64,000 nt of DNA from Burkholderiales bacterium (lineage in GTDB: Bacteria; Pseudomonadota; Gammaproteobacteria; Burkholderiales; SG8-41), in the NCBI GenBank assembly GCA_019744975.1, contig JAIETP010000013.1, forward strand, positions 1-64,000, in the 5' to 3' direction. Positions within the stretch are counted from its first letter, which is position 1; the number at the start of each line of letters is the position of its first letter. Shown here in pieces: positions 13,834 through 27,555 of this stretch. The position numbers were made by a program, and so were the translations under genes. The notes under the pieces were generated by a model. It had not been told where the DNA came from. It did no database searches and saw only the letters and a list, made by a program, of their open reading frames with translations.

Positions 13834-14058
13834 AACTCCCCCCAAGGCGTCCGTTGGCTACCGCCACCGTGACACTGCATCGTAGCCGACGAGTCAGCGA
13901 AAGAGAATCTACTTGCACAAAGATTTGCCTCTACATAGTTGTGAGTGGGTCAATCGTCACTGCGCGCCACGAAGTCCGGATTGTATTGGTAGAGGTTGTC
14001 GGCTGTTGCGGCCATTGCCATTTAAATAAAGAGGCGCGGGTAGAATGATCGCGTCATC

Positions 14059-14226
14059 ATGGAAAAGCCACGCGACAATCATTCGCTCAACGAAGGCCAG
14101 CCTAGATACATTTTGATCACCCCGACCCTGCGTGTTGCAGGCTGGAAAATCGATGACCGGGCCAGTGTGACTGACTTCGGTTGTAAACATACAATGATCG
14201 CGTTTGACCATGGCTATTCATCCTGA
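14059..14226 (+). CDS. Small ORF, possible HsdR N-terminal remnant
   Basis: A 55-codon ORF that overlaps the start of the res gene in another frame. Its middle, NEGQPRYILITPTLRVAGW, resembles the start of type I restriction (HSDR_N) subunits, which often read NEA.TR...I.P.L..AGW. It could be a relic of an older restriction gene, a leader ORF, or chance. The rest of the stretch from 13834 to 14209 holds no other gene I can support; it marks the left edge of the defence island. Confidence 0.3.
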   Translation: MEKPRDNHSLNEGQPRYILITPTLRVAGWKIDDRASVTDFGCKHTMIAFDHGYSS

Positions 14227-16933
14227 GTTACCCGAATCTCCGTACGCCATTCTCAATCCGGACCATCGCTGGTTCCCGGCGGCGGAGGAACTGCGGGAGA
14301 AATCCTACGAAAAACTGCTGCCGCCGCTCGTCGCGAAAGTCCGCGCCGAGGTCAAGGCATGGCGGGATGCCGGCTATGCAGGCGCTACCGATACTTCGCG
14401 TGCCTTGCTCCGCTGGTGGTTCGATACCGAACATTTGACTGAACAAGCCAACGGTTCGCTCGCATCTTTCCGCTATTACTTCGCGCAGCGCGAGGCCGTC
14501 GAGACGGTCATCTGGCTGCACGATGTGCGTCGCGCGCGAGACAAATTCGACCTGCTCCGGTTTGATGCCTCAGGCGCGGTATCGGCAGGCATGTTTTCGG
14601 AAGAGTGGCCTCGTTACGTCGTCAAGATGGCTACCGGTGCGGGCAAGACGAAAGTGCTCTCGCTGTTGATCGCGTGGAGCTACTTCCATAAGTTGTACGA
14701 ACCTGACTCGACACTCGCTCGCAATTTCCTGCTGATTGCACCCAATATCATCGTGCTTGATCGCCTGCGCGCGGATTTTGACGGGCTGCGCATCTTTTTC
14801 AACGACCCGATCCTGCCCGACAACGGCCATGAGGGGCGCAACTGGCGGGATGACTTTCAGATTACGCTGCACATCCAGGACGACGTGCGTGTGGTGCGGG
14901 ATACCGGCAACCTCTTCCTGACGAACATTCATCGCGTATATCTCGGTGATACCGTCGATCCCTCGCTGGAGGACGACGACCTGCGCGATTACTTCCTCTC
15001 GCCGTTCGGTCCGAAACCCGTCGGCAAGACGACTGACAGCAAGACGGATCTTGGTGAAGTCGTCCGTGAAATCGAGGAGCTGGCGGTCTTCAATGACGAA
15101 GCCCATCACATCCACAACGAAAAGATGGCGTGGTTCAAAAGCATCCAGGACATCCACCACCGCATGTTGCAGAAAGATGGCCGCCTTGCATTGCAGGTGG
15201 ACGTTACCGCCACGCCGCGCCACGACAACGGCGCGATTTTTGTGCAGACAGTGTCTGACTATCCGCTGGTAGAAGCCATCCACCAGAACGTAGTGAAACA
15301 TCCGGTGCTGCCTGACGCAGCGAGCCGCGCCAAGCTGCAAGAGCACAAAAGTGCATTGTTTACCGAGAAACATGCCGATTACCTCGCACTCGGCGTCGAG
15401 GAATGGCGCAAGACCTACGTGGAACACGAGAAGCTCGGCAAAAAAGCGGTGCTGTTCGTAATGGTGGACGACACCCGCAACTGTGACGAGGTTGGCGCGT
15501 ATCTCGAAAAAATATGCCCTGAACTAGAAGGGTCAGTGCTGGTCATTCACACCAAAACCAATGGTGAGATTTCCGAAGCGGCATCCGGCAAGAGCAAAGA
15601 AGAACTCGAAGTCCTGCGTGCTGCCGCGAATTCCATTGACGGCTGGAAAAGTCCCTACAAGGCCATCGTGTCGGTCCTGATGCTCAAGGAAGGCTGGGAC
15701 GTGCGCAACGTCACCACCATCGTCGGGCTGCGCGCCTACGCCTCGAAAAGCAACATCCTTCCGGAGCAGACGCTGGGCCGCGGTTTGCGGCGCATGTATT
15801 TCGGCACAGATATGGCAGAAACTGTCTCGGTCATGGGTACCCCCGCATTCATGGAGTTTGTCGAATCGATACAGAGCGAAGGTGTGCAACTCGAATACCG
15901 GCCGATGGGTGGCGGCGGTGGCGGGCGCGAAGATTCGCTGATTGTTGAAGTGGATACAGAAAACAAACAGAAGGACATCGACGCGCTCGACATCGCCCTG
16001 CCCAAACTGACGCGCCGCTTCAACCGCGAATACAAGGAACTGGACGCACTCGATCCGGCGCAGCTCGGCAATCCGCAGTTGCCGTTAAAACCATTCACCC
16101 CGGAAGAAACCCGCGAGATCGTGTTCAAGACCATGCTCGACGCGGAGATTCATCACACCATCCAGCTCGACGGCGCGGGACCGGCCGACTACCGCTCGGT
16201 GGTTGGTTTCTTCGCGCGGCAGTTGTTGAAAGACCTGCGGCTGGTCGGCGGCTATGACATCCTCTACGGAAAAGTTAAAAATTTCCTTCAAAATCAATTA
16301 TTTAAGTCATCGCCCGTCAATCTGGAAGATCCGGTCGTGCTGCGCAATCTCTCCGAGCCCGAGGCGGGGAAAATACTGTTCGATGCCTTCAAGGCTGCAA
16401 TCAACGCGCTGACCGTGCACGACACCGGCTCCGCCCGGATCGAAGACCACATCCGCTTGCGCAACACGCGGCCGTTCCGCACCGAGCACCGGCCGTTTCT
16501 GACGGCGAAGAAATCGATTTTTTCCAAAATCGTTGGCGAACCGCATTCCGGCGGCTTCGAACTCCGCTTCAGCAAATTCCTCGACGATGCGCCGGATGTC
16601 GCCGCATTTGCGAAAAACTATCTTGCGGTCGGCTTCAGGATCGACTACGTCAAGGCCGACGGCGATCTTTCCACTTACACGCCGGACTTCATCATTCGCA
16701 CCACTGACGGCACGGTTTGGATCGTCGAAACCAAGGGACGCAAGGAGCTTGATCTGCCGCAGAAAATGGTCCGCCTCCGACAATGGTGCGAAGACGCCAC
16801 CAGCGCAGGCAAGGCTGATAATGGACCCAACTACCGGTTTGTCTATGTCGATCAGGAGGGCTATGAACGACATCCGCCACTGGATTTTGCCGGGCTGGCA
16901 TCCGCTTTCCGGGAATATCAAGACACGCCATGA
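14210..16933 (+). CDS. Type III-like restriction endonuclease subunit (SF2 helicase-nuclease)
   Basis: A 907-residue DEAD/DEAH helicase with a C-terminal nuclease. Walker A is ATGAGKT (141-147), the Walker B box is DEAH (296-299), and motif VI is near 520-530 (QTLGRGLRRM). The nuclease is a PD-(D/E)xK site: Asp826 in TPDFI, then Glu840 and Lys842 in VETKG. It should translocate on or remodel DNA and cut it unless the partner methyltransferase has modified the sites. I use the ATG at 14210; a TTG two codons earlier is possible. The stop overlaps the start of the AlbA_2 gene by ATGA, so the genes are translationally coupled. Confidence 0.9.
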   Translation: MAIHPELPESPYAILNPDHRWFPAAEELREKSYEKLLPPLVAKVRAEVKAWRDAGYAGATDTSRALLRWWFDTEHLTEQANGSLASFRYYFAQREAVETVIWLHDVRRARDKFDLLRFDASGAVSAGMFSEEWPRYVVKMATGAGKTKVLSLLIAWSYFHKLYEPDSTLARNFLLIAPNIIVLDRLRADFDGLRIFFNDPILPDNGHEGRNWRDDFQITLHIQDDVRVVRDTGNLFLTNIHRVYLGDTVDPSLEDDDLRDYFLSPFGPKPVGKTTDSKTDLGEVVREIEELAVFNDEAHHIHNEKMAWFKSIQDIHHRMLQKDGRLALQVDVTATPRHDNGAIFVQTVSDYPLVEAIHQNVVKHPVLPDAASRAKLQEHKSALFTEKHADYLALGVEEWRKTYVEHEKLGKKAVLFVMVDDTRNCDEVGAYLEKICPELEGSVLVIHTKTNGEISEAASGKSKEELEVLRAAANSIDGWKSPYKAIVSVLMLKEGWDVRNVTTIVGLRAYASKSNILPEQTLGRGLRRMYFGTDMAETVSVMGTPAFMEFVESIQSEGVQLEYRPMGGGGGGREDSLIVEVDTENKQKDIDALDIALPKLTRRFNREYKELDALDPAQLGNPQLPLKPFTPEETREIVFKTMLDAEIHHTIQLDGAGPADYRSVVGFFARQLLKDLRLVGGYDILYGKVKNFLQNQLFKSSPVNLEDPVVLRNLSEPEAGKILFDAFKAAINALTVHDTGSARIEDHIRLRNTRPFRTEHRPFLTAKKSIFSKIVGEPHSGGFELRFSKFLDDAPDVAAFAKNYLAVGFRIDYVKADGDLSTYTPDFIIRTTDGTVWIVETKGRKELDLPQKMVRLRQWCEDATSAGKADNGPNYRFVYVDQEGYERHPPLDFAGLASAFREYQDTP

Positions 16934-18594
16934 CGCACGACCAGCTCCAGAGCCAGCTTGATAAGCTGATTGCAGATTGGGAAAACGAATGCGTCGAGTT
17001 CAAAGACGCAAACGATAATTTTTCGACTTCCGATATTGGTAAATACTTTTCGGCGCTTAGCAATGAGGCCAACTTGCGTGTACGCGAAGCGGCTTGGCTG
17101 GTATTTGGCGTAAATAACAAGACACGTACTGTCATTGGCACGACATACAGAGAGGACTCTGAGCGTCTGCACAGTCTCAAGCACCAGATCGCGCAAGGCA
17201 CCGATCCGTCGGTGTCCTTCCGCGAAATTCATGAACTGCAAACACCGCAGGGGCGCGTACTGTTGTTTGAAATTCCCCCAGCACCACACGGCATCCCCAT
17301 CGCATGTAATGGCCATTACTATGCCCGCCAAGGTGAGAGCCTCTCCGCCTTGGACCTTGCCAAACTGGATGAGATTCGCGCGCAGGGTGTCGCCGATGAC
17401 TGGTCTGCTGGCGTATGCGACAAGGCGACGCTGGCCGATCTTGATCCCGAAGCCATCGCCAAGGCTCGCGAAATTTTCCTCGGTAAATATCGCGACCGGA
17501 TTCCAGCCGATACCATGCAGGCATGGGACGACGCTACCTTCCTCGACAAGGCCAAGCTCACCATTGAGGGCGGCGTCACCCGTACTGCCCTGTTACTGCT
17601 CGGCAAGCCGGAATCGACCCACCACCTGAGTCCCTGTGTCGCCGAGTTAAGCTGGAAGCTCGAAGGCGAGGAGTTGGCCTACGAGCACTTCTATCCGCCT
17701 TTTCTGCTGTCCACTTCGCGCCTTTATCAGCGCATACGCAATATTCGCCTCACGATTCTTCCGCCGGGGCAGATGATTCCGCTGGAGATTTCCAAGTACG
17801 ATCAGCGAATTGTCCTCGAAGCGCTGCATAACTGCATCGCGCATCAGGATTACACGCGGGCCGAACGCGTGTTGGTGATTGAGCGCCCCGGTGAACTCGT
17901 TTTCCAGAATGCCGGTCAGTTTTTTGACGGCGCACCGGACGACTACATACTTCACAACCGTACGCCCAGCCGTTACCGCAACCGCTTTCTGGCCGAGGCC
18001 ATGGTGCATTTGCGCATGATCGACACCATGGGATTCGGCATACGCGAAGTCATGTTCCGCGGTCAGGCGCGCCGCTATCTGCCGCTGCCGGATTTTGATC
18101 TGAGTGATCCGAGCCATGTGGTGCTGCATTTGCCGGGCCGCTTCCTGGATGAAAACTACAGCCGTGCCCTTATCACGCACAGCGATTTTTCACTGGGAGA
18201 GATTCTCGCGCTGGACCGGATTCAGAAGGGTGAATTACCTGACGAATCCACGCTAAAGGTGCTGCGCAAACGCGGTTTGGTGGAAGGCCGCAAGCCTGCT
18301 TTTCATATCTCCGCCAGCGTCGCCGAAGCCACCGGGGAAAAGGCGGATTACATCCGTACCCGACGGCAGGATGATGCGCACTACCGCAAACTTATCGTTG
18401 ACTATATCGCGCAGTGGAAACAGGCCACGACAGGCGAAATCCGCGACTTGCTGGCCCCCAAGCTGCCTGACAACCTGAAACATACTCAGAAAGAAAACAA
18501 GGTGCGTAACCTGCTCAGCAGCCTGCGCGAGCAGGGCATCATCCGCAATGAGGGTTCCCGGCGCTACCCGCGCTGGGTGCTTGTCAATAACTAG
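16930..18594 (+). CDS. AlbA_2 domain / divergent ATPase protein with winged-helix tail
   Basis: A 554-residue protein with an N-terminal AlbA_2 domain (about 8-150; ENECVEFKDANDNF, then a FGVNNKTRTVIGT segment). The central HATPase_c_4-like region (about 285-380) contains EALHNCIAHQDYTRAERV and GFGIREV, and the C-terminal winged-helix region runs from about 460 to 550. Such proteins are annotated as RNA-binding-domain or ATP-dependent DNA helicase-like regulators. Its position between res and mod, with ATGA overlap to res, means it belongs to the restriction system, perhaps as a regulator or a specificity accessory. Its role in such systems is not established, so this is inferred from context. 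Confidence 0.8.
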   Translation: MTHDQLQSQLDKLIADWENECVEFKDANDNFSTSDIGKYFSALSNEANLRVREAAWLVFGVNNKTRTVIGTTYREDSERLHSLKHQIAQGTDPSVSFREIHELQTPQGRVLLFEIPPAPHGIPIACNGHYYARQGESLSALDLAKLDEIRAQGVADDWSAGVCDKATLADLDPEAIAKAREIFLGKYRDRIPADTMQAWDDATFLDKAKLTIEGGVTRTALLLLGKPESTHHLSPCVAELSWKLEGEELAYEHFYPPFLLSTSRLYQRIRNIRLTILPPGQMIPLEISKYDQRIVLEALHNCIAHQDYTRAERVLVIERPGELVFQNAGQFFDGAPDDYILHNRTPSRYRNRFLAEAMVHLRMIDTMGFGIREVMFRGQARRYLPLPDFDLSDPSHVVLHLPGRFLDENYSRALITHSDFSLGEILALDRIQKGELPDESTLKVLRKRGLVEGRKPAFHISASVAEATGEKADYIRTRRQDDAHYRKLIVDYIAQWKQATTGEIRDLLAPKLPDNLKHTQKENKVRNLLSSLREQGIIRNEGSRRYPRWVLVNN

Positions 18595-18615
18595 CAGCCT
18601 ATCGCTAACGCCGCG

Positions 18616-18680
18616 TTAGTAATAAATCCTAGCAATGAAATTAACTAACTATTTGATTTTTAATAATATTTAATTACTAA
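18616..18680 (+). promoter_or_regulatory. AT-rich inverted repeat upstream of mod
   Basis: TTAGTAATAAAT (18616-18627) is mirrored by ATTTAATTACTAA (18668-18680), with one base difference, in the 136-bp gap between the AlbA_2 gene and mod. The interval also contains a copy of the dispersed AT motif. This could be an operator or promoter that lets mod be expressed separately from res. Confidence 0.4.
18646..18670 (+). repeat. Dispersed AT motif, copy 3
   Basis: TAACTATTTGATTTT then a one-base insertion and a similar tail. IHF consensus on the minus strand at 18646-18658. In the AlbA_2/mod gap. Confidence 0.6.
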
Positions 18681-18730
18681 GTGCGTTCGTGAAAACTGGG
18701 CTTTATCAATGAAATCGGCATACTGAATCC

Positions 18731-21127
18731 ATGGCCAAACCAACCAAAACCGCCTACGAACTCACCGACGCCGAAAGGCGCGACCTGACGCAATTGATCC
18801 AAGAAGGCAAAGCGCTGCCGGAGAAATACCGCTTCGTGTTGTTCGAGGATAAGCGCGAAGTCGAATTGGTATGGAACGGCAAGACGCGCGACGTGTGCAC
18901 GACCGTGCTGCCGTTCCAATCGCTGGAACATATCGACGAGCCGCGCAAGGCCGCGCCGGAGTCGCAGCAAATCGACCTGTTCGATACACGCGGACGGCAG
19001 TTAAAGGGCTGGACCAACAAGCTGATCTGGGGCGACAACAAGCTGATCCTGTCGTCGTTGAAAAGCGGTGCGCTGCGCCAGCAGATCGAGGAGGCGGGCG
19101 GATTGAAGCTGATTTACATCGACCCACCGTTTGATGTCGGCGCTGATTTTTCAATGGACATCGAAATCGGCGGCGAGACTTTTCACAAGGAACCCAACCT
19201 GCTGGAGCAGATCGCCTACCGCGATACGTGGGGGCGCGGTGCGGACTCGTTCATAGCCATGATCTATGAGCGTTTGATATTGATGCGCGATTTGATGCAC
19301 AGCGAAGGCAGCATATACGTACATTGCGATTGGCGGGTGAATAGTCTAATCAAGGTAGCAATGGATGAGGTTTTTGGTAGCAATAATTTTCGAGCGACTC
19401 TTTGCTGGAAAAAGGCCACCAAGACAACCTCATTTAACGATTTCGGATCGGAACATGACACACTCATTTTGCATAGTCGTGACTATGAACATATTATTTT
19501 CAATCAGCAGTTCCGTGAACTTGCTGAAGAACAGATTGATAAAAATTATAAATTCGTCGAATTGCCAAACGGAGAGATTGCAAGATTAAGTAAAAAACAA
19601 ATTGAAGGGTTGGAGCCAATGCCAAAGGGCAGAAGGTTTCGTGCCATCCCGATTACAAACATGAACAAGAATCGACCAAATCTACGCTACGAGTTTCTTG
19701 GGCATACGCAGACTTGGGCTAAGTCGAAAGACAAGTTATTAGATGAACACGCAAAAGGGCTTATTTTCCAAACATCGCCAGATACCATCCCAGTCAAGAA
19801 GCAATATCTCGACGAAAATAAAGGTGTGAAAGTTAATGATCTTTGGATAGACATACCGCCAGTGCAGGGTGGTTCTGACGAAAACACAGATTATCCAACT
19901 CAAAAACCCGAAAAACTTCTGGAGCGAATAATTGAGTCTTCCACCAACTCAGGCGACCTCGTCGCCGATTTCTTCTGCGGTTCTGGCACTACCGCCGCTG
20001 TAGCCGAAAAACTCGGGCGCAAATGGATCGCCACCGACCTCGGCAAGTTTGGTATCCACACCACGCGCAAGCGCCTGATCCAGGTGCAGCGCGAGCGCGA
20101 AAAGGCCGGGTTGTCGTTCCGTTCCTTTGAGGTGCTGAATCTCGGCCGCTACGAGCGGCAGGCATATCTCAACGTCGGTGGGCGGCTGACCGGCGCGCAG
20201 AAGGAACAGGCGCTGGCGCAGAAAGAGCGCGAATTCCGAGAACTTATCCTGCGCGCCTACAAAGCCCAGCCGCTGGAGGGCGAAAGCTTCTTCCACGGCA
20301 AAAACGCCGGGCGTCTTGTTGTCATCGGCCCGATCAATCTGCCGGTCGGACGTCTGTTCGTCGAGGAAGTCATCACCGAATGCCGCAAACGCGGCGCCTC
20401 GCGCGCGGATGTGCTTGCGTTCGAGTTCGAGATGGGCCTGTTTCCCGCCGCGCTGGAAGAGGCGAAACAGAAAGGCATCGACCTTGTGCCGAAACAGATA
20501 CCTCCCGAGGTATTCGACAAGCGGGCGGTAGAGAAGGGGCAAGTGGTTTTTTTCGACATCAGCTTCGTCGAAGCCACACCGCGCTACGCCAAGGGCCGCA
20601 GCGCGCAGGACAAACTTACACTGTCCATCGAACTCACGGATTTCTCGGTTTACTACACGCAAGGCGCGATGGATGCGGCCATCGCCAGCCTCAAGGAAGG
20701 CAAAAGCGAGGTGGTGTGCGAGCAGGGGCGGCTGCTCAAGATCAGCAAGGACAAGATCGGCGCCGTCACGCGCGACGTGCTCACCAAGCATTGGACCGAC
20801 TGGGTGGATTACTGGGCGGTGGATTTTGACTACATGCAGCGCAAGGAAATCATCAAGGTCCAGAAAAGTCTCGGCGTCGAGGAAAAACTTCCCTTACCCC
20901 CTGCCCCGGTGGGCGAGGGGAGTCAAACGGAATTCGAGGAACGCTGGACCGGCGGTTATATTTTCGAGAACGAGTGGCAGAGCTTCCGCACACGGCAAAA
21001 TCGCAAGCTGGAACTCGCCACCGCACCGCATACCTATTCACAGGCCGGGCGTTACACCGTCGCCGTCAAGGTGATTGATATCTTTGGCAACGACACGATG
21101 ACCCTCGTGCCTGTGAGCGTAGGGTGA
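18731..21127 (+). CDS. Type III-like DNA methyltransferase (Mod), beta class
   Basis: A 798-residue site-specific DNA methyltransferase. Motif IV DPPF is at 131-134 and the SAM-binding motif I DFFCGSGTT at 413-421; this IV-before-I order defines the beta class, so the product is N6-methyladenine or N4-methylcytosine. The target-recognition domain should lie between them (about 215-395) and is encoded by DNA of much lower GC than the rest of the gene. The C-terminal 370 residues are the long extra domain seen in this Mod group, ending with a YSQAGRYTVAVKVIDIFGND element. A GC-rich repeat-like insertion encodes LPLPPAPVGEG near residue 721. It protects host DNA from the upstream nuclease. Confidence 0.9.
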   Translation: MAKPTKTAYELTDAERRDLTQLIQEGKALPEKYRFVLFEDKREVELVWNGKTRDVCTTVLPFQSLEHIDEPRKAAPESQQIDLFDTRGRQLKGWTNKLIWGDNKLILSSLKSGALRQQIEEAGGLKLIYIDPPFDVGADFSMDIEIGGETFHKEPNLLEQIAYRDTWGRGADSFIAMIYERLILMRDLMHSEGSIYVHCDWRVNSLIKVAMDEVFGSNNFRATLCWKKATKTTSFNDFGSEHDTLILHSRDYEHIIFNQQFRELAEEQIDKNYKFVELPNGEIARLSKKQIEGLEPMPKGRRFRAIPITNMNKNRPNLRYEFLGHTQTWAKSKDKLLDEHAKGLIFQTSPDTIPVKKQYLDENKGVKVNDLWIDIPPVQGGSDENTDYPTQKPEKLLERIIESSTNSGDLVADFFCGSGTTAAVAEKLGRKWIATDLGKFGIHTTRKRLIQVQREREKAGLSFRSFEVLNLGRYERQAYLNVGGRLTGAQKEQALAQKEREFRELILRAYKAQPLEGESFFHGKNAGRLVVIGPINLPVGRLFVEEVITECRKRGASRADVLAFEFEMGLFPAALEEAKQKGIDLVPKQIPPEVFDKRAVEKGQVVFFDISFVEATPRYAKGRSAQDKLTLSIELTDFSVYYTQGAMDAAIASLKEGKSEVVCEQGRLLKISKDKIGAVTRDVLTKHWTDWVDYWAVDFDYMQRKEIIKVQKSLGVEEKLPLPPAPVGEGSQTEFEERWTGGYIFENEWQSFRTRQNRKLELATAPHTYSQAGRYTVAVKVIDIFGNDTMTLVPVSVG
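19365..19900 (+). other. AT-rich block in mod covering the target-recognition region
   Basis: Counting bases, 19441-19560 is 42/120 G+C (35%), whereas 19021-19080 in the same gene is 36/60 (60%). The low-GC block starts after the FGSNNFRATLCWKKATKT codons and ends near STNSGDLVADF, just before motif I. This is the pattern expected from exchange of the target-recognition domain by recombination. Confidence 0.7.
20891..20921. repeat. GC-rich inverted repeat inserted in frame in mod
   Basis: The stretch has arms CCCCCTGCCC and GGGCGAGGGG around a CGGT loop, similar to C-rich intergenic repeats scattered in many proteobacterial genomes. Here it is read in frame as LPLPPAPVGEG within the C-terminal domain, which suggests a tolerated insertion. 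Confidence 0.5.
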
Positions 21128-21205
21128 TCTGGTTAAAGCTTGTGGCACTGCGCTCAGAAACCACAGGTTTACCCCTAGACTTAGTGTGGCCGTGGGAGTG
21201 ATTGC

Positions 21206-23167
21206 TTGATTATTCAACGCATTGAAGTAAAAAACTTTCGTTCACTAAAGGACGTGAGCATTGATTGTCATGAGCTTGTTGCAATTCTGGGGCGCAATGG
21301 AAGTGGAAAATCATCCCTGCTTAAGACGATTGAGGCGTTTTATGACGTTGGTTTTTTGGCGAATGCATTCGACTACTTTGGCAAGGACACCACTTCTGAG
21401 ATAAGTATTCGGATTACTTACGGGGAATTGCGCGATGATGAGCTAACTGAATTTAAATCATATTTGACGGGAAAAACGCTCACAGTAACCAAGGTAATAA
21501 ATGCTGGCGGCGCAAAATATTTCGGGGTAACTGGGCAGCTCGCGGAGTTTAGCGAATTCAGAAAGCTATCGGCCTTGCCGAAGCGTAAAGCGCTAAATGA
21601 GCTCATTGAGAGCAAGAAGTATCCAGAATTGGGGCCTTCCGTAAAGTCGGAACCTGAAGCCGATGCCTTAATGGGCGACTTCGAGAAAAAGAATCCACAA
21701 TTTCTTGTCCCCGTTCAGCGAGAGGAGCAATTCTTCGGCCCTAAGAATGTTGGGGGTGGCAAGATTGATCACTACACTCGTTTTGTCTTGGTTCCGGCGG
21801 TCCGAGATGCTACGTCCGAAACTGAGAGAAAAGGTGTCATTCTTCAGTTGATAGATGTTCTTGTGGCGCGAAGCGTGAATGCGAGAAAGGACGTACGCGA
21901 TCTAAACGAGGAGTTTGAAAAGAGAGTAAAGGCTGTATACAGCGCAGAGAATCTCACTGAACTAACAGCTCTTGCCAAGATGGTTACTAAGCTACTTTCG
22001 CAATACGCACCAGGCGCTGAGCTTGATTTGGCCTTTGGTGATGTAACTCCCCCAAAGATCTTATTCCCAACGGCACTAGCGTCTCTGGTCGAGGACAATT
22101 TCAAATCTCCAATTAGCTATTCCGGCCATGGATTGCAAAGGGCATTAGTTCTTGCCTTGCTCCAACAACTATCGCTAACTGATCTATCGGCACCCGCGAA
22201 GGAGCCGATAGCAGAGGGGGAGGATAAAGCCGAGGAACTCAAGAAGTTTCGTGTTCCTGATCTTATACTTGCAATCGAGGAACCTGAACTTTATCTACAC
22301 CCTTCTCGAAGCAGATTTTTGTCCTCTGTCTTGGATCAGTTGTCGACTAAGCCTGTGAAGGCGGAGGACGCACGTACCCAAGTCCTTTATGCGACGCACT
22401 CCCCGTATTTCATCAACTTGGGTCGTTTTGAACGAGTGCGGCTTGCCCGCAAGATACCCGCGAAGGATGTTCCGACGCTGCAATGCAAGATTACTGCATT
22501 CTCGAGAGATCAAGCAGCGGCAAGGCTGGCAGCTATCAGCCAAAAGGATCCAAAACTATTCACTGCCGATACCTTCTTAGCTCATGCAATACCGGTAATG
22601 AACGCGACCGTTAACGAAGGATTTTTCGCTGATGCTGTTTTTATTGTGGAGGGGTTAACTGAGTTCGGAATCTTTTGGGCTCTTCAGAACATCATGAATA
22701 AAGGCTGGGATCGTCGCGGAATTGTAATTGTTCCGGCTGAAGGTAAGACAAAGATTGATAGACCGGTTGTTGTGTTCCGTGGTTTGGAGATTCCTACTTA
22801 CTTTCTCTTTGATGGTGATTCCAAGCATAATGGGAAGGGGAACAAGGATGAAAAATCCACGGCGCAAACCAATCAACTATTGCAAAGACTGGCGGATGCT
22901 GCAGTCGTAGATTTTCCGAGTACCCAGGTAAACAAGGGATGGGCGGTTTTTGGTGATGATGTGGAAATGGAAATCAAAGCGGCCGTGGGTGAGAAATACT
23001 ACCAAGAGGTAAGGGCATTGATTGCCGACGATTTGGGCTATAGCGAACCATCCAAGGCATTGAAAAATCCGGAAGCGGCGGCGCGGTTAATACGCAGTAT
23101 TTATGAAACAGGTCGTAAAGTTCCTGTGCTTGAGGAGATAGTCGAAGCTGTCTCCGCCCAGATTTGA
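21206..23167 (+). CDS. OLD-family ATPase-TOPRIM nuclease
   Basis: A 653-residue protein with an N-terminal SMC/RecF-like ABC ATPase: Walker A GRNGSGKS at 29-36 and Walker B LILAIEEPELYLHP near 353-366. The C-terminal TOPRIM domain has FIVEGLTEFG around Glu482, then FDGDSKH about 50 residues later. OLD nucleases cut DNA and many act in phage defence, alone (class 1) or with a helicase as in Gabija (class 2). No UvrD-like helicase follows, so class 1 is more likely. The TTG start is preceded by GGGAG. Local GC is about 47% in the first lines, well below the flanking chromosome, which supports transfer. Confidence 0.85.
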   Translation: MIIQRIEVKNFRSLKDVSIDCHELVAILGRNGSGKSSLLKTIEAFYDVGFLANAFDYFGKDTTSEISIRITYGELRDDELTEFKSYLTGKTLTVTKVINAGGAKYFGVTGQLAEFSEFRKLSALPKRKALNELIESKKYPELGPSVKSEPEADALMGDFEKKNPQFLVPVQREEQFFGPKNVGGGKIDHYTRFVLVPAVRDATSETERKGVILQLIDVLVARSVNARKDVRDLNEEFEKRVKAVYSAENLTELTALAKMVTKLLSQYAPGAELDLAFGDVTPPKILFPTALASLVEDNFKSPISYSGHGLQRALVLALLQQLSLTDLSAPAKEPIAEGEDKAEELKKFRVPDLILAIEEPELYLHPSRSRFLSSVLDQLSTKPVKAEDARTQVLYATHSPYFINLGRFERVRLARKIPAKDVPTLQCKITAFSRDQAAARLAAISQKDPKLFTADTFLAHAIPVMNATVNEGFFADAVFIVEGLTEFGIFWALQNIMNKGWDRRGIVIVPAEGKTKIDRPVVVFRGLEIPTYFLFDGDSKHNGKGNKDEKSTAQTNQLLQRLADAAVVDFPSTQVNKGWAVFGDDVEMEIKAAVGEKYYQEVRALIADDLGYSEPSKALKNPEAAARLIRSIYETGRKVPVLEEIVEAVSAQI

Positions 23168-23180
23168 GTATGGAGGAGAT

Positions 23181-23477
23181 ATGCAGAATGATATCTGTCA
23201 AGCAATCGAAAAGCGGCGAGTAATTTCATTTTCGTACAAGAGTGGTGAACGTACGGTTGAGCCGCATATGGTTGCTTTTAGCAAAACGGGGAAGCTCGTG
23301 CTAAGTGCTTGGTTTCTCCAAGGCGGAAGCGAGTCCAAAGAAGGCCCGGGTTGGCGAACCTATGCTTTGGATGAGATGTCGCGGCTAACAGTCTCGAGCA
23401 AGACATTTAGTGGACCAAGGCCAGACTATCAAGCAGATGGTGGGAGGTCCTTTCGCCGGATTCAATGCGCGCTCTAA
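23181..23477 (+). CDS. Small WYL-domain-like protein
   Basis: A 98-residue protein that begins 13 bp after the OLD nuclease stop and is preceded by GGAGGAG, so it is probably cotranslated. IEKRRVISFSYKSGERTVEPHMVAF and the later WRTYALDEMSRL match the beta-barrel WYL domain, which senses ligands such as nucleic acids in regulators of CRISPR and other defence systems. There is no helix-turn-helix, so it would act through a partner, most simply the OLD nuclease. It is a bare WYL module; whether it regulates or is an effector subunit is unknown. Confidence 0.6.
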   Translation: MQNDICQAIEKRRVISFSYKSGERTVEPHMVAFSKTGKLVLSAWFLQGGSESKEGPGWRTYALDEMSRLTVSSKTFSGPRPDYQADGGRSFRRIQCAL

Positions 23478-23557
23478 TAGTGACGTTACTTAACCTTGAA
23501 CGGCCGAGCGTGTGGAATGAGGTCAGCGCATGGATTGACCAGGAAGATTTCATTTAA

Positions 23558-23736
23558 AACGCCAAACTGTACGAGATCGCCAAAGTCGATACGCTGAAAG
23601 CGTCAAAGCTGCTCGCGGGCTGGCGTGAGCAAGGGTGCTGGTGGCATTGCCCGGCCGCGGCAAACGCAACATGGCCTATACCAAGCCGGCGCAGGTGGAT
23701 AGCCCGAGCGAGGCGGGCGGTGTTGAGCCGCCATGA
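23558..23736 (+). pseudogene. Remnant of a winged-helix gene C-terminus
   Basis: One frame reads YEIAKVDTLKASKLLAGWREQG up to about 23635, then a single-base shift continues as VLVALPGRGKRNMAYTKP and stops at 23736. The joined peptide looks like the C-terminal winged helix of AlbA_2/ATPase-type or similar regulators. It lacks the rest of the gene. The surrounding stretch 23478-23807 has no intact gene and contains a copy of the dispersed AT motif. Confidence 0.5.
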
Positions 23737-23790
23737 TGGTGGCAGCGGTTGTTTTCCCGGCCGTCGGATAACAATCCAGAAAATTTAATA

Positions 23791-23816
23791 AATATCAATA
23801 AAAACAATTACTTAAG
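23791..23816 (-). repeat. Dispersed AT motif, copy 4
   Basis: Reverse orientation; 22 of 26 bases match copies 2 and 5. Located among the gene remnants, at the broken end of the ORF6N fragment. Confidence 0.65.
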
Positions 23817-24010
23817 CGGATCGTTATTTTCCAGGCGGCGACACTTTGGGAAAACGAGCATAAGGGGATAGCCCTTAAGGGCGTAGGCGAGCTGGAGGTG
23901 GTCGCAATTTGCGACCACCTCGTCGCGTGCGGTGCGGCTGAGCTGGAAGACAAAATCGGCTGGAAAACGACCGGGATTGCGTTTGACCTGCTCGGTCAGC
24001 CGTAGCCTAC
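23808..24010 (-). pseudogene. ORF6N-domain (KilA-N-like) gene fragment
   Basis: The translated segment RLTEQVKRNPGRFPADFVFQL followed by EVVANCDHL and YAL.GYPL closely follows the ORF6N pattern (L.EQVKRN..RFP.DFMFQL..EVVA.CDHL...). The family's start (the ELYGV region) and everything after the CDHL segment are missing or frameshifted. ORF6N proteins are DNA-binding proteins of phages and genomic islands. The fragment abuts the 3' end of the small gene at 24007-24438. Confidence 0.65.
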
Positions 24011-24438
24011 GGACAGCCCAGTCGCGCCTTCTGGTCGAGCAGCGCCTGATGTTGCTCGCGAGTCGTGTCCTCCGCGTTAGCAACGCACGTCAGCACCGCG
24101 CAAAGTACAGGCAGCGAAAGGTTCACGATGAGAGATAGGGTGCCGTTCGCGGTGTCGGTGTCAAAATCGCGCGAGTCGTAATCGTCCGCGGCACGCAGAT
24201 CGACCCAGGTGGGCCGCGTCAATGGATTGCCCGGGACGCCCAGATAGTAGCCGGGGTAGGGATCGCCGTGATAACACGGGGGGTTTTCGGGGCGTCCGTG
24301 CGGCGCACTCGTCAGAAGCCGGTAAATGATGTCCTGCCCCGGCGTAAAAGCGAACAGGACGAGATACTTCGCTTCCCACTCCCCCTGTGCGTTCTGGTAG
24401 TAACGATCGTGCCGGTAAATCTCGCCCGGCAGTGGCAT
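24007..24438 (-). CDS. Unknown small protein, candidate toxin partner of the Panacea gene
   Basis: A 143-residue protein that I do not recognise. It begins 6 bp after the Panacea-domain gene on the same strand, so the pair is probably one operon. MPLPGEIYRHDRYYQ, then a KYLVLFAF strand, GDPYPGYYLGVPGNPLTRPTWVDLRAADDYDSRDFD and a hydrophobic segment LSLIVNLSLPVLCAVLTCV are the visible features. The start resembles SH3-like (MazF/PemK) toxins only loosely. Panacea antitoxins pair with many unrelated toxins encoded next to them, so a toxin role is inferred from position. The 3' end joins the ORF6N fragment, so the C-terminus may not be original. Confidence 0.5.
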   Translation of the reverse strand: MPLPGEIYRHDRYYQNAQGEWEAKYLVLFAFTPGQDIIYRLLTSAPHGRPENPPCYHGDPYPGYYLGVPGNPLTRPTWVDLRAADDYDSRDFDTDTANGTLSLIVNLSLPVLCAVLTCVANAEDTTREQHQALLDQKARLGCP

Positions 24439-24444
24439 GCGCGC

Positions 24445-25041
24445 TTAGCCTGCAGCAAGCCGGTGCGGGGGGCGCGATGCGTTTGCCGCGTTTGCGCGTT
24501 CGACGGCCTCGTATTCGACGGCAGCCTGCAGAATGGCGTCGCGGTTCGGGTCGTTATCAGCCAGAACGAGACGGTAGTTGATCACCTGATCGTTTCCCGC
24601 ACCGTCCTGCCACACCCTCGCCCAGGCGCCGTTTTCGTCATGGGTGACGTCGATCAGTTTTTCCGACAAGTCTTCAGCATGGCTCGAAGCGAGTTCTCCA
24701 AGAATGCGCAGTTCACGCGGGGTGAAGTGCGAATTGTCGAATGTTCGCTTCGCGATCACGTTCTCTCGCACGTAGTCGTACACCTTCTCCGGCCGTATTT
24801 CGATGGCCTCATCGAGATCGGGGTCAAGGTCGTCCCAGATCTGCACCAGAGCGGCTGGTACCGGCCCCATCTTCCAGGCGCGGTATTCCATGCCGGTGAC
24901 CGGCCGGCCAGTCTGGCGGAAGTGCTCGAAGTCGAGCAGATAGAGCAGCTTGAACAGCTTGATTTTGCCAAGACCGCGCGTGTGCCCGGCGAAGTACAGA
25001 ATGGCGTTGATCAGCTTGTCGCGGGAGCGAGAAACGAGCAT
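24445..25041 (-). CDS. Panacea (SocA-like, DUF4065) antitoxin-type protein
   Basis: A 198-residue protein; the start at 25041 has GGAGG seven bases upstream, better than the ATG six codons earlier. KLINAILYFAGHTRGLGKIKLFKLLYLLDFEHFRQTGRPVTG and YRAWKMGPVP are the hallmark elements of the SocA/GepA DUF4065 (Panacea) domain. SocA is a proteolytic adaptor antitoxin in Caulobacter, and Panacea proteins are antitoxins for many toxin folds. C-terminal residues 150-198 are an extension that could provide toxin specificity. The unknown small gene follows immediately. A 34-codon ORF ends at the upstream ATG. Confidence 0.8.
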   Translation of the reverse strand: MLVSRSRDKLINAILYFAGHTRGLGKIKLFKLLYLLDFEHFRQTGRPVTGMEYRAWKMGPVPAALVQIWDDLDPDLDEAIEIRPEKVYDYVRENVIAKRTFDNSHFTPRELRILGELASSHAEDLSEKLIDVTHDENGAWARVWQDGAGNDQVINYRLVLADNDPNRDAILQAAVEYEAVERANAANASRPPHRLAAG

Positions 25042-25055
25042 GCGATTTCCTCCGC

Positions 25056-25160
25056 TCATGCCTGAATGGGCAAATTATCGTTCATAAGGCCCCGGACTTC
25101 AACCGCGGGACGAATCTTGGTCGCGGTAACGAGGCGTGCGGCAGATTGTGGTTTCTTCAC
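25056..25160 (-). CDS. Possible 34-residue leader ORF before the Panacea gene
   Basis: A GTG-initiated ORF with GGGAG about 9 nt upstream. It reads VKKPQSAARLVTATKIRP and ends LPIQA, with its TGA overlapping the first ATG of the Panacea gene (ATGA). It lies between the LexA-like gene and the Panacea gene and is basic. It may be a leader peptide or a chance ORF. Confidence 0.3.
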   Translation of the reverse strand: MKKPQSAARLVTATKIRPAVEVRGLMNDNLPIQA

Positions 25161-25175
25161 GATGATGTTCTCCCG

Positions 25176-25754
25176 TTACCGGTACGTCCTGAACTGCCCG
25201 ACCACCACCCCGAATATTTCCAACTCACCTTTGGGCCGGATGACCGGATAGGCCCTGTTCTCCGGCTTGAGCACAATCCGACCGCGCTCCTTGTGTAGCC
25301 GTTTGAGCGTGAATTCGTTATCGACGAAGGCAACAACGATCTCGCCAATGTTGGCGGAACCGCGTTTTTCCACGACGACCAGATCGCCTTCCTGGATGCC
25401 GGCATCGATCATCGAGTCGCCCTTGACCTTGATAAGCACTGAAATCGACGGATTTGGAATCAAACGCTCGTCGATGGTGATCGTGTCTGTGGCGATGATG
25501 TCAGGCGCCAGCGTCGGCAAGCCGGCTTGCACACTCTCGGTCATTGGTCGCTCGAAGAAGCGTCGCCCCGGCTTGAGGCGCCGGTCTGGCGTACTTTCGA
25601 CGTAACCCTCGGTCTTCAGGCGCTGAACCAGGCCAGCTACCGACGCCTTCGAATTCAGTCCGACGAGGAGGCCGACCCTTGCATAGGACGGCAGAACCCG
25701 GTGCCGGGCGTAGTAGTCCTGTAGCCGCGCGAGGTATTGACGGTCATCAGCCAT
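25176..25754 (-). CDS. LexA-like SOS-type repressor (S24 peptidase)
   Basis: A 192-residue repressor-peptidase. The N-terminal 70 residues form a winged-helix region (LPSYARVGLLVGLNSKASVAG looks like the helix-turn-helix). The autoproteolysis module has the catalytic Ser114 in KGDSM and Lys151 in FTLKRL, exactly the 37-residue spacing of E. coli LexA. A possible Ala-Gly cleavage bond is at 77-78. Such proteins self-cleave on RecA filaments and release their operators. The palindrome 13 bp upstream is a likely autoregulatory site shared with the divergent tcmP gene. It is probably an island-borne LexA, distinct from the housekeeping copy; that is an inference. Confidence 0.88.
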   Translation of the reverse strand: MADDRQYLARLQDYYARHRVLPSYARVGLLVGLNSKASVAGLVQRLKTEGYVESTPDRRLKPGRRFFERPMTESVQAGLPTLAPDIIATDTITIDERLIPNPSISVLIKVKGDSMIDAGIQEGDLVVVEKRGSANIGEIVVAFVDNEFTLKRLHKERGRIVLKPENRAYPVIRPKGELEIFGVVVGQFRTYR

Positions 25755-25767
25755 TCGCCTACGATAC

Positions 25768-25781
25768 CGAACGATCGTTCG
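25768..25781. promoter_or_regulatory. LexA-type operator, perfect 14-bp palindrome
   Basis: CGAACGATCGTTCG is a perfect palindrome and matches the GAAC-N4-GTTC SOS box of Gram-positive bacteria rather than the CTGT-N8-ACAG box usual in Beta/Gammaproteobacteria. It lies 14 bp upstream of the LexA-like gene and 20 bp upstream of the TcmP gene, so it could control both. Confidence 0.7.
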
Positions 25782-25800
25782 TTAGTCAACGAGGCTTGGA

Positions 25801-26709
25801 ATGGAAAGTACCAAACCGCACATTATGGCGACACACCGCTTCGGGGGCTCATGGACAGAGCACAAGCTAAATGCGCTTCGCGACTATCTTGTGCAGTATC
25901 AAAAAATCTTCACAACGAACCCGAACGCCAGGAAACTCAAGACTATTTACGTCGATGCCTTTGCTGGGACGGGTGATCGAGACACAGGCGAAGACTTGCG
26001 ACAGACTTCGCTTTTCGGATACGACGATGACACGCGGGGTTATCAGGAAGGTAGCGTCAGGGTTGCTCTGTCGCTGGAAAACAAATTCCACCAATACATA
26101 TTTATTGACAACAAGACGAAGCACGCGAGCGCGTTGCGTGATCTAGTCAATTCAAAATTCGCCGCACTGGCTGATCGTTGTGTGATCGAAAAGACTGACG
26201 CGAACCGCTGGCTCCAGGATTGGTGCCGTACGCAGAACTGGCGTGAACAGCGCGCTGTGGTTTTTCTGGACCCATACGGAATGGACGTCGAATGGGAAAC
26301 TATCGAGGCTATTGCCAACACGAAAGCCATAGACCTTTGGGTGTTGTTTCCGCTGGGGATCGGCCCCAGCCGCGTCCTGCCAAACCAAGAGGTGCCAGAT
26401 ACCCAATGGGCAAACCGTCTCACCAAGCTGTTTGGTACCGACGAGTGGGAATCCCAGTTTTATCGTGAGGGCGGGGACGTGGATCTATTTGGTGTGAAAC
26501 GCGAATCGGTGACAAAAATTGCGGGGGTGGACGAGATACTGGCGTTTTTTTTGGATCGATTAAATTCCGTTTTCGAGAAAACTGTCGAGCACCCGCTGAT
26601 ATTGTATAACTCCAAGCATTCGCCAATGTACGCACTGTGCTTTGCTGCGGGAAACAAAAAGGGTGCTCCCATCGCTGTGAAAATCGCCACCCATCTGGTT
26701 CGCGGCTAA
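25801..26709 (+). CDS. Three-Cys-motif partner protein TcmP
   Basis: A 302-residue protein of the TcmP family, conserved next to three-Cys (Gp37/Gp68) proteins. HRFGGSWTEHKLNALRDYL is the usual start; DAFAGTG (52-58) and FLDPYGMD (about 155-162) look like motif I and motif IV of a class I methyltransferase fold. GAGG lies 6 nt before the ATG; an ATG eight codons later is an alternative. It diverges from the LexA-like gene across the palindromic operator, which suggests DNA-damage induction. Its biochemical activity is not established. Confidence 0.85.
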   Translation: MESTKPHIMATHRFGGSWTEHKLNALRDYLVQYQKIFTTNPNARKLKTIYVDAFAGTGDRDTGEDLRQTSLFGYDDDTRGYQEGSVRVALSLENKFHQYIFIDNKTKHASALRDLVNSKFAALADRCVIEKTDANRWLQDWCRTQNWREQRAVVFLDPYGMDVEWETIEAIANTKAIDLWVLFPLGIGPSRVLPNQEVPDTQWANRLTKLFGTDEWESQFYREGGDVDLFGVKRESVTKIAGVDEILAFFLDRLNSVFEKTVEHPLILYNSKHSPMYALCFAAGNKKGAPIAVKIATHLVRG

Positions 26710-26747
26710 GCCGCTCAAGCTATACTGCGAAAAAATTCGCACCCAAT

Positions 26748-27497
26748 ATGCCGACACGATCAAACATCGAATGGACCGAGCAGACCTGGAACCCGACCGT
26801 GGGCTGCACGAAGGTCTCACCTGGTTGCAAGCACTGCTATGCGGAAACCATGGCCCGGCGACTTCAGGCCATGGGGGTAAATGGTTACGAAAACGGTTTC
26901 CGTTTGACGTTGATGCCCGACCGGCTTTCAGAGCCACTGGAGCGCCGCAAGCCGACGGTCTATTTCGTGAATTCCATGTCTGACTTGTTCCATGAAAAGG
27001 TGCCTTTCGATTACATCCGCCGTATTTTCGACGTGATGGCGCGTTCGCCGCAGCACACGTTTCAGGTGCTCACCAAGCGTGCGGAACGCATGGCTGAGTT
27101 CTGTCACGGAGTTGATGTGCCCAGCAACGTCTGGCTTGGTGTATCGGTGGAAAACAAGAAGCATGGTGTTCCGCGCATCGCGGTGCTGCGGACTATTCAG
27201 GCGAAAGTCCGCTTTATGTCTGTGGAACCGCTACTCGAAGATTTGGGTGCGATCGACCTCGAAGGAATTCATTGGGTCATTGTCGGCGGCGAGTCAGGCC
27301 ACAAGGCTCGTCCTATGCGCAATGAGTGGGTGGACAGTGTCAAACGACAATGCGACCAAGCCGAGGTCGCATTCTTCTTCAAACAATGGGGTGCGTGGGG
27401 CGCGGATGGCCAGAAGCGATCCAAGAAAGCAAACGGGCGAACCTACCGCGGCAAAATTTTCAATTCCATGCCGGACATGATGCCAGCGATGGTCTAA
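26748..27497 (+). CDS. Phage Gp37/Gp68-like three-Cys protein (DUF5131)
   Basis: A 249-residue protein with the three-cysteine motif Cys20, Cys27, Cys30 in WNPTVGCTKVSPGCKHCYAE, which resembles a radical-SAM iron-sulfur site. The rest forms a radical-SAM-like barrel, with KPTVYFVNSMSDLFHE and QVLTKRAERM as the other conserved elements, ending in FKQWGAW. It follows tcmP by 38 bp and the two always-paired families probably act together. The start is the ATG that gives MPTRSNIEWTEQTWNP, the standard N-terminus; longer forms overlap tcmP. It is the last island gene. Confidence 0.88.
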   Translation: MPTRSNIEWTEQTWNPTVGCTKVSPGCKHCYAETMARRLQAMGVNGYENGFRLTLMPDRLSEPLERRKPTVYFVNSMSDLFHEKVPFDYIRRIFDVMARSPQHTFQVLTKRAERMAEFCHGVDVPSNVWLGVSVENKKHGVPRIAVLRTIQAKVRFMSVEPLLEDLGAIDLEGIHWVIVGGESGHKARPMRNEWVDSVKRQCDQAEVAFFFKQWGAWGADGQKRSKKANGRTYRGKIFNSMPDMMPAMV

Positions 27498-27555
27498 AAG
27501 GCAGCGATGGCCACATCGACCGTTTCGCCACTTTTTCCTTCACGTCCCTCGCGCT

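What the first reader, a model, noticed from the sequence alone, without database searches (positions are those of the whole stretch)
14210..21127. Type III-like R-M locus with an AlbA_2/ATPase protein between res and mod
The usual type III system has only mod and res. Here a 554-residue AlbA_2/HATPase/winged-helix protein is translationally coupled to res. It might regulate expression, prevent self-cutting or add a second effector activity.
Basis: partly seen in the sequence, partly recalled or inferred. Interest (0 to 1): 0.6.

Follow-up and report, generated by a model that had tools for sequence, protein, structure and literature searches.

The report
Swappable effector slot in restriction system
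A DNA-cutting anti-phage system carries, wedged between its cutting gene and its DNA-marking gene, a third gene shaped like mammalian antiviral RNA-cutting proteins; related systems hold different toxin-like genes in the same place, which suggests a built-in, exchangeable backup weapon.

Summary
The window has res (14210-16933), an AlbA_2/HATPase/winged-helix gene (alb, 16930-18594, ATGA overlap with res) and mod (18731-21127), inside a 13.7-kb island absent from that site in 9 of 12 same-genus genomes. The order res-alb-mod recurs in 11 of the 80 closest alb loci, from four phyla. The N-terminal domain has the SAMD9/Schlafen tRNase fold (VIA Z 7.4-10.3; first other fold 4.8). Two essential Schlafen glutamates are invariant (50 of 50); the third acidic residue is Asn in 36 of 50, window included. 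alb is not tied to one partner: of the 80, 40 sit in another type III-like setting, 11 near type I genes, 18 elsewhere. Conversely, Res relatives found without using alb carry other things between res and mod: a 28%-identical AlbA_2 protein, MNT-HEPN, a PIN/VapB-like pair, RhuM, a Bro-N protein, or nothing. Best reading: an exchangeable slot for backup, RNase-type effectors watched by the R-M enzyme, as PrrC is by EcoprrI. The principle is known; I found no description of the type III slot. No function has been tested.

The parts
14210..16933 (+). res: type III-like restriction subunit, 907 aa from ATG (SF2 helicase GAGKT/DEAHH, C-terminal PD-(D/E)XK-like PDF...ETK)
16930..18594 (+). alb: 554 aa, Schlafen/AlbA_2 domain (about 1-155), GHKL/HATPase_c_4 domain (about 237-405), C-terminal winged helix (about 478-553); ATGA overlap with res
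16981..17004 (+). codons 18-25 of alb (E18...E23-F-K25): the two glutamates that align with the essential E205/E210 of rat SLFN13 (mapping by spacing, inferred), invariant in 50 of 50 aligned proteins
17116..17118 (+). codon 63 of alb (Asn): aligns with the third acidic residue (D248) of rat SLFN13; N in 36, D in 14 of 50 aligned proteins
18595..18730 (+). 136-base gap between alb and mod; no significant tandem repeat here (p 0.335) and no promoter-like site listed in it
18731..21127 (+). mod: beta-class DNA methyltransferase, 798 aa (DPPF at 131, FCGSGT at 415)
13841..27559 (.). acquired island that holds the trio: the two flanking stretches lie 110-675 bases apart in 9 of 12 same-genus genomes

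Best explanation
A type III-like R-M operon carries an accessory effector in an exchangeable slot between res and mod. Proposed mechanism: Res and Mod mark and cut DNA in the usual way. Alb, made in step with Res through the overlapping start codon, stays inactive while the R-M enzyme is sound; when a phage inhibits or overwhelms restriction, its GHKL ATPase and winged helix release the Schlafen-like domain to cut tRNA or other RNA, so that translation stops and the infection is aborted, as PrrC does beside EcoprrI. Shown: the operon, its conservation, the -4 junction, the predicted fold, the two conserved glutamates, the differing slot contents of close Res relatives. Inferred: RNase activity, silencing by the R-M enzyme, the trigger, the abortive outcome.
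For: Order res-alb-mod in 11 of 80 alb loci; -4 overlap in the window and in 7 of 9 measured loci (the other two +9 and +5), and again where the slot holds a 28%-identical AlbA_2 protein (L145, L147; L114 and L143 by the ORF lists; the -388 printed for L114 came from a wrong frame in my script). AlbA_2 and HATPase in 50 of 50 aligned proteins. N-domain matches 3lmm (Z 11.3, rmsd 3.5, 136 aligned), SAMD9 including an entry titled tRNase domain (9o0d, Z 10.0, rmsd 3.4, 143) and Schlafens (Z 7.4-8.2), next fold Z 4.8. E18, E23, K25 and the HATPase residues E297, N301, D365, G368, G370 invariant in 50 of 50. Other occupants of the slot in the same Res clade include HEPN with MNT (L118) and a PIN-domain ORF with a VapB-like ORF (L122), which are RNase-type toxin modules. 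Three well-supported Res sister pairs differ in slot content; in L143/L144 (same genus) 92% DNA identity stops within about 10 bases of the res stop. PrrC precedent: PMC2610378 abstract, PMC12707154 passages.
Against: The third acidic residue is Asn in 36 of 50 aligned proteins including the window, so the domain may bind nucleic acid without cutting. Some copies follow housekeeping genes (L010, L012, L041, L018, L048; their other neighbours were not all scanned), so an R-M silencer may not always be at hand. RhuM, Bro-N and KilA-N occupants are not known RNases, and one of nine visible slots is empty (L148). None of those nine carries the window's own alb version. On the Res tree all labels together need only 7 changes (least possible 6), because the clade is largely unresolved, so frequent exchange is not shown. 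No toxicity, RNA cleavage or phage data for this family came from any call. HEPN/PIN occupants could be stabilising toxin-antitoxin pairs rather than backup effectors.
Confidence: 0.47

Rival explanations
1. Alb is a regulator: the winged helix binds DNA near res or mod and the protein sets the timing of restriction against methylation, protecting a new host; the AlbA_2 domain only binds nucleic acid.
For: Winged helix at 478-553; third acidic residue often lost; mod is separated from alb by a 136-base gap; 10-11-base tandem repeats in the alb-mod gap of 4 of 11 window-type loci tested, window included (L004, L005, L007, L013; 0 of 200 shuffles as good for each; 24 stretches tested in all).
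Against: No such repeat in the window (p 0.335) or in the six other window-type loci (p 0.065-0.825), and the repeats differ between loci; no conserved operator in eight aligned gaps; no promoter-like site listed in the window's gap. Alb homologues lie beside unrelated R-M types. Its replacement by HEPN or PIN genes is not what a needed regulator would show.
Confidence: 0.22
2. Alb is a working part of the restriction complex, for instance an extra ATPase that helps Res or checks for DNA ends.
For: Conserved -4 coupling to res; alb sequences cluster by R-M type more than shuffled labels do (21 changes against a mean of 37), as expected if Alb touches its partners.
Against: 21 changes is far above the minimum of 3, though truncated contigs inflate it; Res relatives of 77-83% identity come with an unrelated gene or none in the slot; the same family accompanies HsdR-type, RE_endonuc-type and window-type helicases. 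In an m4C type III system the extra (SF2) ATPase was not required for methylation and was not seen in a preparation that cut DNA (PMC8259958, Results and Discussion read).
Confidence: 0.16
3. Alb and the other slot genes are hitchhiking toxin-antitoxin or selfish genes that merely sit safely inside an operon.
For: HEPN/MNT and PIN/VapB-like pairs in the slot; exchange between close relatives.
Against: No separate antitoxin gene was recognised beside alb; its coupling to res is conserved across phyla; close alb relatives recur beside type I and other type III-like genes.
Confidence: 0.15

Closest known systems
PrrC in the EcoprrI type IC locus
   Same: A nuclease gene with its own ATPase embedded in an R-M operon; silenced by the R-M enzyme and released by a phage antirestriction factor (PMC2610378 abstract, PMC12707154 passages).
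   Different: PrrC is an ABC-ATPase with a HEPN nuclease (PMC3710099 passages) in a type I system; here a GHKL ATPase with Schlafen/AlbA_2 in a type III-like system, and no silencing or cleavage has been shown.
[quoted passage not shown] section 35, part 1 of 2, and passages read)
   Same: Same three-domain architecture in words, close linkage to the core genes, and a similar list of alternative effectors (Schlafen, HEPN, PIN, OLD); proposed there as backup suicidal effectors.
   Different: That survey covers BREX and BREX-related systems; here the host system is type III-like and the differing genes sit in one defined slot between res and mod. Sequence kinship to their proteins was not tested.
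m4C type III systems with a third, helicase-like ATPase gene (PMC8259958; abstract, Results, Discussion read)
   Same: Type III R-M with a conserved third gene of unknown function.
   Different: Their third gene is an SF2 helicase-like ATPase 5' of mod; Alb is not a helicase. The class B loci (SNF2 helicase, DUF4391, MTase, alb, ResIII/RE_endonuc) may be that group with alb added; I did not test this by sequence.
HEPN, RhuM and Doc genes embedded in R-M operons (PMC3710099, passages read)
   Same: Multi-level defence logic; RhuM and HEPN as R-M neighbours, as found here in the slot.
   Different: HEPN-centred; no Schlafen gene in a type III slot in the passages read.
Mammalian Schlafen (SLFN5/11/12/13/14) and SAMD9 AlbA_2 domains
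   Same: Same fold, Z 7.4-10.3; two catalytic glutamates conserved.
   Different: Third carboxylate replaced by Asn in the window; different C-terminal domains; activity untested.

Membership tests
Type III R-M system | Res with SF2 helicase motifs and C-terminal PD-(D/E)XK nuclease | tested here: met
   ResIII Pfam, GAGKT, DEAHH, PDF...ETK; no solved relative by sequence at E 0.01; NCBIfam BPTD_3080 family 260.7 bits, below its cut-off of 800
Type III R-M system | beta-class Mod related to EcoP15I Mod | tested here: met
   DPPF before FCGSGT; 4zcf E 8.9e-17 over residues 98-257; PADLOC MTase_III 370.7 bits
Type III R-M system | only mod and res | tested here: not met
   third gene between them in the window and 11 of 80 alb loci; therefore called type III-like with an accessory gene
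Type III R-M system | methylates one strand of an asymmetric site and cuts about 25 bp away | not testable with these tools
   needs long-read methylation calls and cleavage assays
Schlafen/AlbA_2 (PF04326) family | domain above the curated cut-off | tested here: met
   60.4 bits, cut-off 25.3; 50 of 50 aligned proteins match at E 0.001
Schlafen-type RNase | three-carboxylate active site (E205, E210, D248 of rat SLFN13) | tested here: inconclusive
   both E invariant 50 of 50; third position N in 36, D in 14 of 50, N in the window
Schlafen-type RNase | RNA cleavage | not testable with these tools
   no assay
PrrC-like guard of an R-M enzyme | accessory gene embedded in the R-M operon | tested here: met
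PrrC-like guard of an R-M enzyme | ABC-ATPase with HEPN nuclease (PrrC family itself) | tested here: not met
   domains are AlbA_2, HATPase_c_4, winged helix; it may work like PrrC but is not a PrrC
PrrC-like guard of an R-M enzyme | silenced by R-M, released by antirestriction | not testable with these tools
   no experiment
BREX | PglZ and other BREX core genes next to the trio | tested here: not met
   no PglZ or other BREX family among the Pfam rows of ten proteins of the island; PADLOC rows shown name none either, but for two proteins only the best 25 rows were shown

The most novel reading that the evidence does not exclude
One lineage of type III R-M enzymes has a dedicated cassette site between res and mod into which unrelated RNase-type effectors (two Schlafen-like subfamilies, HEPN/MNT, PIN/VapB-like) and RhuM or Bro-N proteins are exchanged, several of them read in step with res; the R-M enzyme acts as a general sensor that holds whichever effector is plugged in.
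Probability: 0.34. Interest if true: 0.68.

Novelty: new variant of a known kind. Interest (0 to 1): 0.5.

Why it matters
If right, type III R-M systems, usually described as two-gene machines, can carry a built-in second line of defence, and the slot between res and mod becomes a place to look for undescribed anti-phage effectors. It would also extend the guard logic known from PrrC to type III systems and give a direct test: does inhibiting the R-M enzyme switch on whichever protein sits in the slot?

Tried and rejected
OLD-family gene (21206-23167) as a fourth part: rejected, no OLD match (E 1e-8) in any of the 80 alb loci. TcmP as a part: rejected on the same ground. DUF5131, SocA-like and LexA-like genes were taken as separate island genes from their families; their conservation with the trio was not searched. 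Viral origin: the IMG/VR scan with Res gave 1 locus, a 21-residue match; the phage collection gave 22 records with Mod matches under 60% identity, none covering 80% of it. Conserved operator in the alb-mod gap: not found. Alb as part of a known PADLOC system: only a weak pAgo-model match, 16.5 bits. VIA-align on the whole Alb model was dominated by the winged helix and HATPase, so the N-domain was folded alone; no family is called absent on that basis. Class D means only that none of my reference proteins was found within 9 kb on the same strand; several D loci have under 1 kb of upstream sequence (L015, L061, L079). Res tree: L120 and L150 are long branches; L118 and L134 are partial and were kept; L005 and L009 (res in two frames) and L004, L008, L119, L121, L122, L123 were left out. 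The Alb search of 229 class genomes (9 with a match, own included) was not analysed for neighbours. Papers: no description of AlbA_2 or HEPN genes between mod and res of type III systems in the listings of searches (open-licence PMC only, no bioRxiv; at most 20 titles listed each, out of millions because of common words). The preprint on bacterial Schlafens cited in PMC12839542 was not held and not read. The rlo genes of Campylobacter are recalled; only listed papers.
Full report
OBSERVATION. The three genes are as described. res probably begins at the ATG at 14210 (homologues align from residue 2-3 of the TTG-started ORF) and ends at 16933. alb (16930-18594) overlaps it by ATGA. mod (18731-21127) follows after 136 bases. 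Domains: ResIII in Res, SLFN_AlbA_2 and HATPase_c_4 in Alb, N6_N4_Mtase in Mod; the winged helix is seen in the predicted model (pLDDT 81, pTM 0.58) by fold comparison. The segment is part of a lower-GC stretch (0.50-0.59 per 2 kb over 14-28 kb, against 0.59-0.66 elsewhere in the window). The flanking stretches are separated by 13,719 bases here and by 110-675 bases in 9 of 12 same-genus genomes (in two of the nine, G657 and G662, the left match stops short, so the gap is overstated); in the other three one flank was not found well. Of 18 same-genus genomes searched for Mod at E 1e-40, one has a 38% partial match and the other 17 none. So this is an acquired island.

CONSERVATION OF THE TRIO. 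Classified by reference proteins found within 9 kb on the same strand: window-type res-alb-mod 11; another type III-like setting 40, of which 36 show the ResIII/RE_endonuc protein downstream and 35 have alb between that system's methyltransferase and it (often preceded by an SNF2-type helicase and DUF4391); type I genes 11; other 18. The 'others' include copies that directly follow housekeeping genes (L010 transketolase-like, L012 tRNA-modification, L041 ribonucleotide reductase, L048 glucosamine-synthase-like, and L018 a few genes after a PEP-utilising enzyme), copies beside an SMC-like DUF3584 gene (L025; L027 by sequence cluster), an SbcC-like ATPase (L066) or a 1,409-aa Eco57I-type methylase (L081); their other neighbours were not all scanned. 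The 11 window-type loci come from records labelled Nitrospirota, Pseudomonadota, Verrucomicrobiota and Omnitrophota, mostly metagenome bins. This sample is biased to close alb relatives. In the less biased direction, 2 of 4 close relatives of the second system's Res have alb next to them (L153; L155/L162) and 2 have the methyltransferase directly (L152, L154).

PARTNER SWITCHING. On the Alb tree the four context labels need 21 changes (least possible 3, shuffled mean 37; 0 of 200 shuffles as low). Alb lineages thus tend to stay with one R-M type but change partner repeatedly; some label changes may reflect short contigs. The main window-type clade has 15 rows, 11 of them window-type and 4 'other'. 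L069, a window-type trio, lies outside it.

THE SLOT. I searched with Res instead of Alb: 274, 398, 78 (overlapping) and 349 genomes, plus plasmids. Besides the window, 22 genomes and 2 plasmids have matches at E 1e-80 or better; I did not fetch two (G734, 35% identity; G897, fragment). One genome (G028) has two places, so 23 places were read. On a Res tree of 27 rows the mod-first and the res-first systems are separated by a 100/100 branch; L121, L122 and L123 are not in the tree and are placed with the res-first clade by identity (L122 also by order). Res-first, 11 places, slot visible in 9: a second AlbA_2/HATPase protein, 28% identical to Alb, in 4 (L114, L143, L145, L147; in L143 the contig ends inside it); MNT plus HEPN in 1 (L118, res in two frames); a PIN-domain ORF with a VapB-like ORF in 1 (L122, whose res is broken; the VapB-like label is my reading, Pfam gave nothing for it); RhuM in 1 (L146); a Bro-N protein cut by the contig end in 1 (L144); nothing in 1 (L148). 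None of the 9 carries the window's own version, which outside the window was found only through the Alb search. Mod-first, 12 places: nothing in 6 (L116, L134, L142, L149, L150, L151), KilA-N in 3 (L117, L132, L133), DUF488 plus an unknown in 1 (L115), AAA_15 plus a small ORF in 1 (L120), and a longer insert with an AAA protein and another AlbA_2/HATPase in 1 (L119). Three well-supported sister pairs on the Res tree differ in slot content: L002/L118, L007/L148, L143/L144. For the last, same genus, 92% DNA identity ends within about 10 bases of the res stop. Against reading this as frequent exchange: most of the res-first clade is unresolved and all labels together need only 7 changes (least possible 6). 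The -4 junction with res recurs with both AlbA_2 subfamilies.

WHAT ALB LOOKS LIKE. The N-domain folded alone (pLDDT 79, pTM 0.75) matches 3lmm (Z 11.3, rmsd 3.5, 136 aligned), SAMD9 (7ksp Z 10.3, rmsd 3.3, 144; 9o0d, titled tRNase domain, Z 10.0, rmsd 3.4, 143), 2kyy (Z 8.6) and Schlafens (Z 7.4-8.2); the first other fold has Z 4.8. The profile aligns weakly by sequence with SLFN13 and SLFN11 (E 0.06). In that alignment E18 and E23 fall on the two glutamates of which single mutants were 'absolutely inactive', and N63 on D248, whose mutation diminished activity (PMC5862951 passages; I matched the chain numbering to the paper's by spacing). The alignment A1 holds the window and 49 of the 80 loci: E18, E23 and K25 are invariant in 50 of 50; position 63 is N in 36 and D in 14. 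The second AlbA_2 subfamily has Asp there in the three proteins aligned. The HATPase residues E297, N301, D365, G368 and G370 are invariant in 50 of 50. So ATP binding is likely and RNase activity plausible but unproven.

MECHANISM. I favour a latent RNase-type effector linked to the R-M enzyme. Shown: operon, conservation, predicted fold, conserved residues, differing slot contents. Inferred from PrrC/EcoprrI (PMC2610378 abstract; PMC12707154 passages), from Schlafen/histidine-kinase/wHTH genes beside BREX (PMC12839542, section 35 part 1) and from HEPN and RhuM in R-M operons (PMC3710099 passages): silencing, trigger, abortive outcome. Against it: the Asn at position 63, copies away from R-M genes, occupants that are not known RNases, and an empty slot in one of nine. 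The regulator, subunit and hitchhiker rivals are given with their evidence.

NOVELTY. The principle is known and the protein architecture is described beside BREX. A third gene in type III systems is described too, but as an SF2 helicase-like ATPase (PMC8259958). I found no description of a Schlafen-like gene or of exchangeable effectors between mod and res in type III systems in the listings (open-licence library); subscription papers and preprints were not searchable. I call it a new variant of a known kind.

Noticed in passing
window 21206-23167 and 23181-23477: OLD-family ATPase with TOPRIM domain (AAA_15, OLD-like_TOPRIM) directly downstream of mod, followed by a short WYL-domain ORF; no OLD match in the 80 alb loci.
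   Followed up: partly
window 25801-27497: TcmP (three-Cys-motif partner) gene and an overlapping ORF with DUF5131, matching PADLOC candidate system PDC-M41 A and B.
   Followed up: no
window 24007-25754 (- strand): SocA/Panacea antitoxin-like gene with an adjacent 143-aa ORF of no family, and a LexA-like S24 peptidase/repressor: possible toxin-antitoxin pair or island regulator.
   Followed up: no
L004, L005, L007, L013, gap between alb and mod: Perfect or near-perfect tandem repeats of 10-11 bases (0 of 200 shuffles as good), different in each locus, not significant in the window; possible operators or spacers of variable length.
   Followed up: partly
L117, L132, L133: KilA-N genes between mod and res in mod-first relatives of the system; function unknown.
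   Followed up: no
G000:C36:16303-17766 (locus L160): A second type III-like Res with a methyltransferase-like match beside it elsewhere in the window's own genome.
   Followed up: no
L025 and L027, downstream of alb: Alb homologue next to an SMC-like (DUF3584) gene and further shared genes in two Halomonadaceae, perhaps a different defence operon.
   Followed up: no
alb residues 478-553: The winged helix scores equally against Z-alpha (4kmf, Z 10.1, rmsd 1.5, 62 aligned) and many ordinary winged helices; Z-form nucleic acid binding is an open possibility only.
   Followed up: no
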